From assembly GCF_000024425.1 (NCBI RefSeq), contig NC_013946.1, forward strand, positions 1,054,001-1,118,000: DNA of 64,000 bases, given 5' to 3'. Numbering within the stretch: the first letter of the stretch is position 1; each line of letters starts with the position of its first letter. The DNA comes from Meiothermus ruber DSM 1279 (GTDB taxonomy: Bacteria > Deinococcota > Deinococci > Deinococcales > Thermaceae). The position numbers and the translations under genes are program-made. The notes beneath the pieces are model-generated. The model saw only the letters and a list, made by a program, of their open reading frames with translations. It did no database searches and was not told the origin of the DNA. Below, one piece after another: positions 4,229 through 28,258 of the stretch.

Positions 4229-4738
4229 ATGCAGATCAGGCGTCTCGAGCCCATCCTGCCCAGAAGATCGGGCCTCACGCTGGTTGAGATACTGGTGGTG
4301 ATGGCTATTCTGGGTGTTTTGCTGGCCATTGCCTCGGTTAATCTCAACGGGGCGCGCCAACGGGCGCTGGTGCGCGAAGCAGCGGCCTCAGTGGCCACAG
4401 CGCTGCTGCAGGCCCGCAGCGAAGCCCAGCGCTACAACAGCAACGTGGTGGTGAGGTTGGAAGTGGACGGCAGCGTGTTTACCATTACCCAGGTTCGCAA
4501 CGGCACACTGGTTAGTCGCACGGTGCGACTGCCCGCTGGAACAGTGGCCTTTGTGCCGGCTGGGGGGCCGAACACCCTAACCTACCGGGCGCCGTTTGGG
4601 GTGCTGGAGGGGGGAGGGGCTGCGTTCTGCTTCAAGCTGGCCAGCCAGAATCCGCCCTGCGACACGACGACAACCTCGATGCCCCGCAGCATTGTGAGTG
4701 TGGTGGGGTTGGTTGGGAAGGTGGTGGTCTTCAATTAG
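4229..4738 (+). CDS. GspH/FimT-like minor pilin
   Basis: Type IV prepilin of 169 residues. The class III signal is plain: basic leader, cut after G15, then LTLVEILVVMAILGVLLAIA with the conserved Glu at mature position 5, followed by the amphipathic helix typical of GspH/FimT pseudopilins. It would be inserted in the inner membrane, cut by PilD and added to the pilus tip complex. It starts 3 nt after the ComZ-like stop codon and is followed by two more prepilins, so the four proteins are probably made and assembled together for pilus priming or DNA uptake. Which Thermus PilA number it corresponds to cannot be told from sequence alone. Confidence 0.85.
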   Translation: MQIRRLEPILPRRSGLTLVEILVVMAILGVLLAIASVNLNGARQRALVREAAASVATALLQARSEAQRYNSNVVVRLEVDGSVFTITQVRNGTLVSRTVRLPAGTVAFVPAGGPNTLTYRAPFGVLEGGGAAFCFKLASQNPPCDTTTTSMPRSIVSVVGLVGKVVVFN

Positions 4739-4757
4739 AGCGGTAGGTAAGCAGCAA

Positions 4758-5195
4758 ATGTGCGTCCCAACCGGGGTGACCCTGGTTGAGTTGCTTATAT
4801 CCATTGTTTTGTTGGGGGCTTTGCTGGCTGCTGTGGCTGGGGCTGTGGCGACCATGTTTGGAGCTACCCGCAGCGCGCAATCGGGCATCAACGCCAACGC
4901 CCAGGCTCGAGAGGTGATGGAAACCCTTAGGGCTCAGTGGACCAACGGTTCAGCGGCCCGGGCGGCTTACGATGCCAACTGTATCAAGATCGCCCTGCCA
5001 GATGGGGCCATCGTTACGGTGGGGGCGGTAAACCCTGCGACCAATACCTATACGCCACAGCCGGTCAACGTTGTACCTCCTGAGGGCATCTGTCCGGCTG
5101 GAGGCTATAACCAGTCGCTCAAACGTATACAGGTGACCATACAGCACAATGGGCGAGCGCTAAGCCATCTAACCCTGGAACTGCCCCGGCCCTAG
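4758..5195 (+). CDS. Type IV minor pilin, PilV-like
   Basis: Prepilin of 145 residues with an unusually short leader: MCVPTG, then the VTLVELLISIVLLGALLAAV helix carrying Glu5. The ATG at 4758 was chosen because it gives a normal prepilin leader; an in-frame ATG at 4698 would add 20 tryptophan-rich residues and overlap the previous gene. Two cysteines further on (in DANCIK and EGICPAG) could pair as in other minor pilins. It lies in the middle of the pilin operon, 19 nt after the GspH-like gene. The PilV label rests on size, position and signal type and is tentative. Confidence 0.82.
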   Translation: MCVPTGVTLVELLISIVLLGALLAAVAGAVATMFGATRSAQSGINANAQAREVMETLRAQWTNGSAARAAYDANCIKIALPDGAIVTVGAVNPATNTYTPQPVNVVPPEGICPAGGYNQSLKRIQVTIQHNGRALSHLTLELPRP

Positions 5196-24883: not shown

Positions 24884-25861
24884 CTAGGGCTTCCGGGCCT
24901 GCACGCCCGGCTGCAAAAACTCGTTGGTGAAGAAGGTGCTGGCCGGCAGGTCGGTTTGGATCCGGCCGGTGGATTTTAGCAGGTTGAGGCTGCTCACCCA
25001 GGCCTGGGGGTTGCTGAAACCCAGCCCATTCTGCCGGGTGTAGGGCGACTCGTAGAGCCGGATGGAAGCCTGCAAAACGGCCATGCGCTCCTGGCCCAGG
25101 TTGGGTACGAAGCGCCGGGCGGCCTCGAAAGCCCGCTGGGGCTCGCGCAGGGTCAGGGCCAGGCCTTCTTGCGAGGCAGCCAGGAAGCGGCGCACGCGGT
25201 CGGGGTTTTCCAGCACCCGGTCGGTGGTGATAACGCCGTTGCCGGGGCTGCGGTTGTAGGGGCCGGCGGGTATGACGTTGAGTTTGACGCCTTTTTCACG
25301 CAGGAAGACCGGCTCGTTGTTGATAAAACCCATGGCCACATCCACCCGGCCCGAGACCACCGCCTCGGCCTGGGTAAAGCCGATTTGCAGAATCTTGACG
25401 TCGCTTTCCTTGAGGCCGGCGGCCCGCAGGATGGCCTGGAGTGAGGTCAGCGAGACCCCGAACATCCCCGGCATCCCGATGGTTTTTCCCTTGAGGTCGC
25501 GCACCGAGCGGATGTTTTTCTCGGCCAGGGAAAACAGGGCATTGGGCACCGACTGGTACATGGCCATCACGTACTTGAAGGGGGTGGCCTGGGGGTTCTT
25601 TGCGCGCAGCGCGATCACGTCTTCGGCGTCGCCCACCACAAAGTCGAGCCGACCCTGGGCCAGCAGGGGATACAGCTCGCTCACAAAGCCGTGCTGAAAC
25701 TCGACCTCGAGGCCCTGCTTGGCGTACAGGCCCTCCACCACCGCTGCGTAAAACGGGGCAAACTGCACATCCGGCAGATAGCCCAGCCCCACCCGCACCT
25801 TTTGACTTTGGGCCAGTCCCAGCGAGATCAACACAGCCAGCAGTAGTACAAGTTTGCGCAT
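24884..25861 (-). CDS. ribY: Riboflavin ABC transporter binding protein, RibY-like
   Basis: Exported substrate-binding protein of 325 residues in the NMT1/THI5/SsuA fold. Signal peptide MRKLVLLLAVLISLGLAQSQ; then VRVGLGYLPDVQFAPFYAA, GLYAKQGLEVEFQ, GRLDFVVGDAEDVI and GFTQAEAVVSGRVDVAMGF, all typical of the family. Sequence alone would also fit a thiamine-precursor or sulfonate binder. The gene is read from an FMN riboswitch (26013-26160), and RibXY transporters of this fold were predicted on just such evidence, so riboflavin is the best guess. The matching ATPase-permease is coded divergently as one fused gene. A TGAGGA ribosome site precedes the ATG. The gene symbol is by inference. Confidence 0.78.
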   Translation of the reverse strand: MRKLVLLLAVLISLGLAQSQKVRVGLGYLPDVQFAPFYAAVVEGLYAKQGLEVEFQHGFVSELYPLLAQGRLDFVVGDAEDVIALRAKNPQATPFKYVMAMYQSVPNALFSLAEKNIRSVRDLKGKTIGMPGMFGVSLTSLQAILRAAGLKESDVKILQIGFTQAEAVVSGRVDVAMGFINNEPVFLREKGVKLNVIPAGPYNRSPGNGVITTDRVLENPDRVRRFLAASQEGLALTLREPQRAFEAARRFVPNLGQERMAVLQASIRLYESPYTRQNGLGFSNPQAWVSSLNLLKSTGRIQTDLPASTFFTNEFLQPGVQARKP

Positions 25862-26012
25862 CTTTGTATATCCTCAACACACCGTGCTAACCATCACAGG
25901 CTCGAAGCAGGCACGAACTGCGTCCGAACCAACCGACTTAACCCGGGTTGTGATGAGGATTTTTTAGGTGGTATTACACATCCTACTTCGCCCAGGCACA
26001 GGGGCACCTGGG

Positions 26013-26160
26013 CTTCACCCCTTCTCCCATCCGGACTGTTACCGTCGGCTTGCGATTCTCACGCAATCGGGCCTGGATGTACGGCTGGATTTCCAGGCTT
26101 CGCGGGCTGAGGCAGACCTGCCATCACCGCCGGTGGGGACTTGCACCCCGCCCTGAAGGA
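26013..26160 (-). ncRNA. FMN riboswitch (RFN element)
   Basis: On the minus strand the conserved blocks occur in order: CTTCAGGGCGGGG with GTCCCCACCGGCGGTGAT, GCAGGTCTGCC, AGCCCGCGA, GCAAGCCGACGGT, and CAGTCCGGATGGGAGAAGG. These are the six-helix FMN aptamer signature. A further stem (25990-26013, GCCCAGG with CCTGGGC) follows, but no T-run, so control may act on translation or through Rho rather than an intrinsic terminator. It lies 150 nt before the RibY-like gene and should reduce its expression when FMN is plentiful. Confidence 0.95.
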
Positions 26161-26183
26161 ATCGGGCCATCCGGCCCACCCAG

Positions 26184-26212
26184 AGTTTAAAGGGAAACCC
26201 GGCCTGCGCAAA
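26184..26212 (-). promoter_or_regulatory. Promoter of the FMN riboswitch transcript
   Basis: Minus-strand TTTGCG (26207-26212), 17 nt, TAAACT (26184-26189), about 25 nt before the aptamer. A 7-bp inverted repeat GGCCTGC...GCAGGCC (26201-26207 and 26218-26224) overlaps the -35 box and could be an operator facing either divergent gene. Confidence 0.55.
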
Positions 26213-26278
26213 GTAGGGCAGGCCAGCTTTGGAGTTCCTGCTTGCAGTTAATCCACGCCCACCCAGTATGCTGAACCC

Positions 26279-27787
26279 ATGCGTGCCCGGCGCCTACCGC
26301 CTACCGCCAACCGGTCGCCTATGCCCGAAAATCCCCCAGGCCTGCCCCCCACGGTGATCCGGCTTACCGGCCTGGGGGTTCAGTTTGATGGGCGCGAGGT
26401 GCTTAAGGGCGTAGACCTCGAGGTGCGGAAGGGCGAGTTTATCGCCATCATCGGGCCTTCCGGTGGGGGCAAGAGCACCCTTTTGCGGGTGATTGCGGGT
26501 TTGCAAAAAGCCCACCAGGGCCGGGTGGAGGTGGCAGGACAGCCCGCCATGGTCTTCCAGGATTATCGGTTGTTGCCCTGGCGCAACGTGGAGCAGAACA
26601 TCCGGCTGCCCATCGAGCTCACCGGGCGCGGAAAAATCGAGACCCATCTGGGCATGAAGCCCTACCTGAAGCTTTACCCCCACCAGCTTTCCGGTGGGAT
26701 GAAGGCCCGGGTCGCCATCGCCCGTGCCCTGGCCCAGGAGGCCGAGGTGCTCCTGATGGACGAGCCCTTTGCGGCGCTGGATGCGTTGGTGCGGGAGCGC
26801 TTCAACCTCGAGCTCAAGCAACTGCACGAGCGCACCGGCAAAACCATTCTGTTCGTGACGCACAGCATCCGCGAGGCGGTGTACCTGGCCGACCGGGTGG
26901 TGGTGCTGACCGGGGGCCGGATTGACACCATCCTGGAGACCAAAGACCAGGGGCGTATCACCGCCTTTACCGACGGCCTCGAGGCTGAGCTGCGCGAGCG
27001 GCTGGGGGTGGCAGACTCCACCTTCATCGAGCCGCCGCCCAAGCCCCTGCGCCCACCCTGGGAAATCTTCGGGGTGCTGGGCCTGGGGGGCCTGTTTTTC
27101 CTGATCTGGAGCCTTCTGGCTGCACGTGTTCCGCTGTTTGTCCCCTCGCCGGCGGAGGTGGGGCGGGCCATGGCAACCAACTTCCCCTTGCTGCTGCAAA
27201 GCGCCTGGGCGACGCTCGAGGCGGCCTTCTTAGGCATCGCCGGCTCGCTTTTGCTGGGGCTGCCGCTGGGGTATGCCATGGGGCGCAGCCGGGCCCTGGA
27301 GCGGCTGCTCTCGCCCTTTATCGTGGCTTTGCAGGCAGTGCCCACCATCATCATCGCGCCTTTGCTGGTGATCTGGTTTGGCTATGGCCTTAGCTCCAAG
27401 ACCATTACCGTCATTCTCATCTCGATTTTTCCCGTTTTGGTGAGCACCATGGTGGGGGTGCGGGAGGTGGATCGGGTTTACCGCGAGGTCTTCCAGACCA
27501 TGGGGGCCAGCGCCTGGGGGGTGTTTAGCAAGCTCGAGTTCCCCGGGGCTTTGCCGGTGGTGCTGGGGGGGCTGCGCCTGACCGTTTCGCTGGCCTTGAT
27601 TGGGGCGGTGGTGGCGGAGTTCGTGTTTGGCGGGGCCGGCCTGGGCTACCTGGCCAACAGTGAGCGGCTCAACTTCCGCTACGCCAACGCCTTTGCTGCG
27701 GTGGGGGTTACGGTGGTGCTGGGCATTGCCCTGTACGGGCTGGTGGCCTGGCTGGAAAGCTACGTGCTGCGCTACCGGCGGCGCTAG
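26279..27787 (+). CDS. Fused ABC ATPase and permease, NitT/TauT family
   Basis: One 502-residue protein holds both parts of an ABC importer. Residues about 25-235 are the ATPase: Walker [10 protein letters not shown] (59-67), Q-loop Q94, signature LSGGM (137-141), Walker B LLMDEP (158-163) and H-loop H195. The helical subdomain between Q-loop and signature is about ten residues shorter than usual. Residues about 260-502 are a six-helix BPD_transp_1 permease with the cytoplasmic EAA-like loop [18 protein letters not shown]. These are normally two genes. With the divergent riboswitch-controlled binding protein it would form a riboflavin importer. A TATGCT box 6 nt before the ATG suggests leaderless translation; an in-frame ATG at 26321 is an alternative start. 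Confidence 0.88.
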
Positions 27788-27829: not shown

Positions 27830-28258
27830 GTGCGGCTGGAACTGGAAAGCCTGCTCGAGCTGGCCGATGAGGGGGTGCACACACGGGGCGAGGCGCTTTT
27901 TTTGCGGGGGGCGGTGCTCGAGGCCGCCCGGAGCCGGGGCCGCCTGCAGGCGCGGGTACAGGGGAGCGCCCCTTTCCCTTACCGGGTCGAGATTAATCTG
28001 AGCCAGGGCGGGTGGGCCTGTACCTGCCCTTATGCCTGGGGGCCGGTGTGCAAGCACGTGGTGGCGGTGGCGTTGGCCGCCCTGGAAGCTCCCGAGATCT
28101 TCACCAGGAAAAAGCTGGGCCGGCGCGCACCCGTGAACTTGCAGGCGATACTCGAGCTGTCCGACGACGAACTGCTGCGCTTCTTGTGGCAACTGGCCGA
28201 GGTGCGCCCCGAGCTTATGCACGAGTTTGCCTACAACCTAATGCAGCGCTTTGAGTGA
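27830..28258 (+). CDS. SWIM zinc-finger protein
   Basis: A 142-residue protein with a SWIM-type zinc site, CTCPYAWGPVCKH (CxC...CxH), at about residues 62-74, after a short beta region. Such domains bind DNA or proteins and often occur beside SNF2 helicases; none is present here. The C-terminal half is helical and acidic (LELSDDELLRFLWQLAEVRPEL). It begins with GTG 42 nt after the transporter fusion and could share its transcript, though no link to riboflavin is evident. The start codon is not certain because no good ribosome site is visible. Function unknown. Confidence 0.8.
   Translation: MRLELESLLELADEGVHTRGEALFLRGAVLEAARSRGRLQARVQGSAPFPYRVEINLSQGGWACTCPYAWGPVCKHVVAVALAALEAPEIFTRKKLGRRAPVNLQAILELSDDELLRFLWQLAEVRPELMHEFAYNLMQRFE

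What the first reader, a model, noticed from the sequence alone, without database searches (positions are those of the whole stretch)
24884..27787. FMN riboswitch-controlled riboflavin importer with a divergent fused ABC component
An FMN aptamer with all conserved blocks drives a NMT1-fold binding protein gene, and the opposite strand starts a one-gene ATPase-permease of the NitT/TauT family. Binding proteins of this fold with FMN riboswitches were predicted as RibY of RibXY riboflavin uptake systems. Here the transport machinery is not in the same operon but divergent, and only the binding protein would be shut off by FMN; the machinery is outside riboswitch control. This implies that supply of binding protein alone sets uptake, or that the fused pump serves several binders.
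Basis: partly seen in the sequence, partly recalled or inferred. Interest (0 to 1): 0.78.

Follow-up and report, generated by a model that had tools for sequence, protein, structure and literature searches.

The report
Vitamin B2 importer, half FMN-controlled
In Meiothermus ruber and its relatives a vitamin B2 sensor in the messenger RNA switches only the catching protein of a vitamin B2 importer, while the pump itself, fused into one protein, is made from its own promoter without that control; many of these relatives have lost the ability to make vitamin B2 and appear to depend on this pair.

Summary
An intact FMN aptamer (101 bits) precedes an NMT1-fold binding protein (RibY), and divergent to it lies a 502-aa ATPase-permease fusion. 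Across 111 Deinococcota genomes the two genes go together: 29 of 31 genomes with either have both; the exceptions are incomplete assemblies. The divergent order is local to the M. ruber group (3 genomes). Elsewhere the order is pump, aptamer, ribY in tandem (14), or the genes are unlinked. No pump locus examined has an aptamer upstream. The pump's start codon follows a TANNNT -10 box at 6-7 bp in 25 of 27 genomes (0.44 expected), the leaderless promoter of this phylum; ribY has its own promoter before the aptamer. Chloroflexota and Actinomycetota homologues are RFN-headed operons. Of 24 near-complete genomes without lumazine synthase, 19 carry the pair. So it is a new variant of the RibXY(Z) riboflavin importer, and supplies the permease reported missing in 2015, when monocistronic ribY with an FMN riboswitch was noted in 'some Deinococci'. 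FMN probably gates RibY alone. Riboflavin binding, the regulatory consequence and the translational mechanism remain inferred.

The parts
24884..25861 (-). ribY: periplasmic NMT1-fold binding protein, 325 aa with signal-like N-terminus
   Evidence: PF09084 E 1.1e-41; AlphaFold2 pLDDT 93.9, nearest solved folds are the thiamin-bound SBP 4nmy and ThiY 3ix1; groups with RFN-linked RibY of Chloroflexota and Actinomycetota
26015..26164 (-). FMN riboswitch aptamer (RFN element, RF00050)
   Evidence: 101.1 bits, full length
26184..26189 (-). TAAACT, putative -10 box of the ribY transcript
   Evidence: a TANNNT box 24-27 nt before the aptamer in 22 of 23 genomes
25990..26013 (-). hairpin GCCCAGG/CCTGGGC directly after the aptamer, without a U tract
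   Evidence: stem pairing kept with sequence changes in Calidithermus-type leaders; no terminator-like site found
25954..25960 (-). AUCCUCA, putative anti-Shine-Dalgarno stretch
   Evidence: exact complement of UGAGGAU at 25870-25876; pairing not significant in all relatives
25870..25876 (-). UGAGGAU, Shine-Dalgarno of ribY
   Evidence: sequence; GAGG kept in most relatives
26267..26272 (+). TATGCT, -10 box of the leaderless pump transcript, 6 nt before the ATG
   Evidence: TANNNT at 6-7 bp in 25 of 27 pump genes, expected 0.44; exact TATGCT in most Thermaceae; leaderless rule from PMC12340547
26279..27787 (+). fused pump: ATPase (residues ~27-223) and NitT/TauT-type permease (residues ~270-502) in one 502-aa protein
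   Evidence: PF00005 and PF00528; Walker A, Q-loop, LSGGM, Walker B and H-loop residues invariant or nearly so in 20 homologues

Best explanation
This is a RibXYZ-type riboflavin ABC importer in which the ATPase (RibZ) and permease (RibX) are fused into one protein and separated in regulation from the binding protein (RibY). The pump is transcribed constitutively, or at least independently of FMN, from a leaderless promoter, so it has no 5'UTR that could hold a riboswitch. RibY has its own promoter and a 5' leader with an FMN aptamer. When cytoplasmic FMN is high, the aptamer folds and RibY synthesis falls, most likely by hiding the Shine-Dalgarno, so the standing pump is starved of loaded binding protein. 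When FMN is low, RibY is made and uptake starts without new membrane protein. Shown by sequence: both genes, aptamer, promoter motifs, co-inheritance, link with loss of riboflavin synthesis. Inferred: riboflavin as ligand, RibY-pump contact, response to FMN, translational mode.
For: Aptamer intact. RibY and pump occur in the same genomes, 29 of 31, including genomes where they are unlinked such as G032. RibH absent from 24 of 85 near-complete genomes, 19 of which carry the pair, against 10 of 61 with RibH (Fisher p 9e-8, not corrected for phylogeny). GTP cyclohydrolase II is also missing in those listed, while flavokinase is kept in 84 of 85. No RibU-family S component over cut-off in the 19, and no PnuX-type protein in 13 of them. 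Homologous Chloroflexota and Actinomycetota loci are RFN-(ATPase)-permease-RibY operons. Fused permease nearer to RibX (mostly 36-44% identity) than to the genome's own other permeases (31-37%) and placed among RibX proteins. Leaderless promoter of pump; ribY promoter; no aptamer upstream of any pump locus examined.
Against: No binding or uptake data. The nearest solved structures bind thiamin or a thiamin precursor. Five RibH-less genomes (G073, G091-G094) lack both the pair and any RFN, so other flavin sources exist. SD-anti-SD pairing is significant in only 7 of 18 leaders and absent in 3. Four relatives (G001, G003, G007, G109) keep RibY without an aptamer. The homologue scan was seeded with the DVQFAPFY motif, so that motif's conservation is partly by selection. 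Some pump start codons were chosen with the -10 motif in view.
Confidence: 0.83

Rival explanations
1. The fused pump is a general NitT/TauT pump used by several binding proteins, RibY among them.
For: Pump and RibY are unlinked in several genomes; the pump is not under FMN control.
Against: The two other strong NMT1-fold binding proteins of M. ruber sit beside their own ATPase and permease genes, and the weaker ones look like phosphonate-type, TRAP-type or MqnA-like proteins. The pump is found only where RibY is found; Thermus has neither.
Confidence: 0.08
2. The system imports a thiamin precursor or another small molecule, and the aptamer only couples that uptake to flavin status.
For: Nearest solved structures are thiamin and formyl-aminopyrimidine binders.
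Against: Presence tracks loss of ribA and ribH; RFN link in three phyla; Chloroflexus RibXY rescues a riboflavin auxotroph (PMC4418817); the W and H of the thiamin-type WxPNxxH motif are Y and F in RibY.
Confidence: 0.06
3. RibY and pump form a riboflavin importer, but separate control has no regulatory meaning: the pump is controlled by some other FMN-dependent means, or RibY is never limiting.
For: Absence of the aptamer in four relatives that keep RibY suggests that control is dispensable.
Against: No pump locus examined has an aptamer upstream, and the leaderless promoter motif is kept in five families.
Confidence: 0.3

Closest known systems
RibXY(Z) riboflavin ABC importer of Chloroflexi and Actinobacteria (PMC3766115; PMC4418817)
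   Same: RibY homologue, RibX-like permease, RFN control, riboflavin supply in genomes lacking biosynthesis
   Different: There the aptamer heads the operon and all parts lie downstream of it; here ATPase and permease are one protein with a leaderless promoter, and only RibY lies behind the aptamer
Monocistronic ribY with FMN riboswitch in 'some Deinococci' (PMC4418817)
   Same: Very likely the same gene family in this lineage; those authors inferred that the permease must lie in another, unregulated unit or be replaced
   Different: They did not identify the permease in the text; here it is identified as the fused pump by co-inheritance and phylogeny
ThiXYZ thiamin-precursor importer / ThiY and THI5 fold
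   Same: Binding-protein fold and transporter family
   Different: No TPP riboswitch; binding-site motif differs; presence follows riboflavin and not thiamin genes (thiamin genes themselves were not searched)
ECF-RibU riboflavin transporter
   Same: Substrate-specific part made separately from the energy-coupling part
   Different: RibU is a membrane S component of an ECF transporter; none over cut-off in the genomes tested

Membership tests
FMN riboswitch (RF00050) | Match over the curated gathering score with the conserved core | tested here: met
   101.1 bits against 66.2, positions 1-138 of 138
FMN riboswitch (RF00050) | Binds FMN and changes expression of the downstream gene | not testable with these tools
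   needs in-line probing or a reporter
RibXY(Z) riboflavin importer | RibY homologue (COG0715/NMT1) related to RFN-linked RibY proteins | tested here: met
   33-40% identity to most RFN-operon RibY of Chloroflexota; Deinococcota clade 97/99 beside them
RibXY(Z) riboflavin importer | RibX permease (COG0600 type) as partner | tested here: met
   permease half 36-44% identical to most RibX, placed among them in the tree, with long-branch outgroups
RibXY(Z) riboflavin importer | ribX and ribY co-transcribed under one FMN riboswitch | tested here: not met
   pump has its own promoter motif and no aptamer; ribY alone lies behind the aptamer. The 2015 paper already allowed for this in Deinococci, so it marks a variant
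RibXY(Z) riboflavin importer | Transports riboflavin | not testable with these tools
   indirect support only: co-occurrence with loss of ribA and ribH
Leaderless -10-motif genes of Deinococcota | TANNNT about 6-7 bp before the start codon | tested here: met
   25 of 27 pump genes, expected 0.44; rule from PMC12340547
Translational (SD-sequestering) riboswitch | Anti-SD stretch pairing with the SD, no intrinsic terminator | tested here: inconclusive
   no terminator in the M. ruber leader; complement present in M. ruber, duplex p<0.05 in 7 of 18 leaders

The most novel reading that the evidence does not exclude
Across Deinococcota, riboflavin uptake is set by binding-protein supply alone: an FMN riboswitch gates RibY while a standing, leaderless-expressed fused ATPase-permease waits for it, a split-control design for an ABC importer evolved from an RFN-headed operon by fusion and by moving the aptamer behind the pump.
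Probability: 0.5. Interest if true: 0.62.

Novelty: new variant of a known kind. Interest (0 to 1): 0.47.

Why it matters
It supplies the permease that was reported missing for riboswitch-controlled ribY in Deinococci in 2015, predicts riboflavin auxotrophy and its remedy in 19 near-complete Deinococcota genomes, and gives a clean natural test of whether binding-protein supply alone can set the rate of an ABC importer.

Tried and rejected
Pump serving many binders: rejected, the other NMT1-fold proteins have their own transport genes or look like other protein types. Divergent order as the essential feature: rejected, 3 genomes only; nearest relatives are tandem. Transcription terminator as expression platform: none found in M. 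ruber. SD sequestration as conserved platform: tested and inconclusive. RibU and PnuX as alternative importers: RibU-type absent over cut-off; PnuC/PnuX-type present in 6 of the 25 genomes tested. Whole-leader fold energy: not unusual (z -1.23). The RibY tree has very long outgroup branches, so the root is not trusted.

Full report
What is there. The window lies in a 3,097,457-bp one-contig genome, the published size of the Meiothermus ruber type strain (PMC3035268). An FMN riboswitch aptamer is at 26015-26164 on the minus strand (101.1 bits, gathering score 66.2, full length). 153 nt after it starts a 325-aa NMT1-fold protein with a signal-like N-terminus (24884-25861 -; PF09084). On the other strand, 26279-27787 encodes one 502-aa protein with an ABC ATPase and a NitT/TauT-type permease domain. 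The ATPase motifs are invariant or nearly so across 20 homologues.

Co-inheritance. In 111 Deinococcota genomes RibY was found in 30 and the pump in 30, with 29 in common. The two that differ, G002 (58% complete) and G042 (85%, pump at a contig edge), are incomplete. The Thermus-like genomes (g4, 27 of them) lack both. In several genomes the two genes lie on different contigs (G003, G007, G008, G030, G033, G036), and in G032, with large contigs, they are truly apart. Both are kept all the same, so the tie is functional and not only positional.

Arrangement. Divergent and adjacent: G000, G038 and G043 (M. taiwanensis, from the named copy), plus G097 with several kb between. Tandem, pump then aptamer then ribY: G005, G006, G023-G029, G031, G034, G035, G037 and G040, often with a small SWIM-domain gene in between. 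Tandem without aptamer: G001 and G109. The nearest relative of the divergent group by RibY, G031 (M. rufus), is tandem, so divergence is derived. Rfam scans of the pump loci found no aptamer upstream of any pump.

Promoters. The pump start codon follows a TANNNT box by 6-7 bp in 25 of 27 genomes from five families, against 0.44 expected from start-like codons in the same loci. In most Thermaceae the box is exactly TATGCT. This is the -10 motif that produces leaderless mRNAs in this phylum (PMC12340547). A leaderless mRNA has no room for a riboswitch. Some starts were chosen with the motif in view, but the aligned position in Thermaceae is unambiguous. RibY has its own -10 box (TAAACT in 16 genomes) 24-27 nt before the aptamer in 22 of 23 genomes, in tandem ones too. 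The two genes are thus most likely separate transcription units whatever their order. In G001 and G003, which lack the aptamer, ribY itself looks leaderless (TATCCT or TATCAT, 6 nt, ATG).

Expression platform. No intrinsic terminator is seen in the M. ruber leader. AUCCUCA (25954-25960) is the exact complement of the UGAGGAU that holds the Shine-Dalgarno. The duplex is better than shuffled sequence (p<0.05) in 7 of 18 leaders and absent in 3. Translational control is the likelier mode in M. ruber but is not settled.

Link with riboflavin. Lumazine synthase is missing from 24 of 85 near-complete genomes, and GTP cyclohydrolase II is missing from all of these that the output lists. Flavokinase is present in 84 of 85. 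Of the 24, 19 carry RibY and pump; of the 61 with lumazine synthase, 10 do (Fisher p 9e-8, not phylogeny-corrected). G038, whose RibY is 96% identical to that of M. ruber, has lost biosynthesis and keeps the pair. None of the 19 has a RibU-family protein over the cut-off, and 13 have no PnuC/PnuX-family protein. RibN, ImpX, RfnT and RfuABCD were not searched. Five RibH-less genomes (G073, G091-G094) lack the pair and any RFN, so they must use something else.

Origin. Homologous loci in Chloroflexota and Actinomycetota are operons headed by RFN: permease-RibY, permease-RibY-ATPase or ATPase-permease-RibY (nine of twelve scanned confirmed by Rfam). In L175 the ATPase and permease genes overlap by ATGA, the arrangement from which a fusion would arise. 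The fused permease half is 36-44% identical to most RibX and falls among them in the tree, against 31-37% to M. ruber's other permeases. The RibY tree puts the Deinococcota proteins in one clade (97/99) beside the RFN-linked proteins, with the caution that the outgroups are long.

Dedicated or shared pump. M. ruber's two other strong NMT1-fold binding proteins lie beside their own ATPase and permease genes (L133, L134). The weaker matches look like a phosphonate-type system (L135), TRAP-type binding proteins (L136, L137) and an MqnA-like protein (L138); those four labels rest on position and sequence starts, not on a domain scan. The shared-pump idea is not supported.

Structure. AlphaFold2 gives a confident model (pLDDT 93.9). 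Its nearest solved folds are a thiamin-bound binding protein (4nmy) and ThiY (3ix1). Profile search agrees. The thiamin-type W.PN..H motif (DWTPNTNH, DWYPNAVH) reads GYLPDVQF in RibY, so the pocket probably differs.

What is known. RibXY was predicted in Chloroflexi (PMC3766115) and shown by complementation for Chloroflexus aurantiacus (PMC4418817). The second paper also reports monocistronic ribY with an FMN riboswitch in 'some Deinococci' and says that the permease must be in another unit. So the aptamer-ribY part is known. The partner pump, its fusion, its leaderless promoter, its co-inheritance and the tie to biosynthesis loss were not found in the papers searched; subscription journals and supplementary tables were not readable here.

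Verdict. A real and functionally coherent system, a new variant of RibXYZ. The strongest new claims are the identity of the pump and its independence of the riboswitch; the weakest is that RibY supply sets uptake, which needs experiment.

Noticed in passing
window 27830-28258 (+); L102-L107, L129: A small SWIM zinc-finger gene sits between pump and aptamer-ribY on the opposite strand in most tandem Meiothermus genomes and downstream of the pump in M. ruber; a BrkB-family gene flanks the pump as well. No link with riboflavin is evident.
   Followed up: partly
L194 3224-3871 (G034), L195 3667-4314 (G036), G035 contig C1 about 4422-4991 (in L196), L197 3541-4188 (G032): Orphan riboflavin synthase (RibE, two Lum_binding domains) divergent to a fadB-like gene, kept in three genomes that lack RibA and RibH (G034, G035, G036); it could use imported lumazine, or serve another role.
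   Followed up: partly
G000 C1:1282298-1282961 (L132): In M. ruber the second FMN riboswitch drives a ribD-type gene on one strand while ribH is divergent from it, so lumazine synthase also lies outside riboswitch control.
   Followed up: no
G073, G091, G092, G093, G094: Five near-complete Deinococcota genomes (family f5) without lumazine synthase, any RFN, RibY, RibU-type or PnuX-type protein but with flavokinase: their riboflavin source is unknown.
   Followed up: partly
G001 (L113) and G003 (L127): RibY without aptamer but with a leaderless-type -10 box 6 nt before its ATG, suggesting loss or absence of FMN control in that family.
   Followed up: partly
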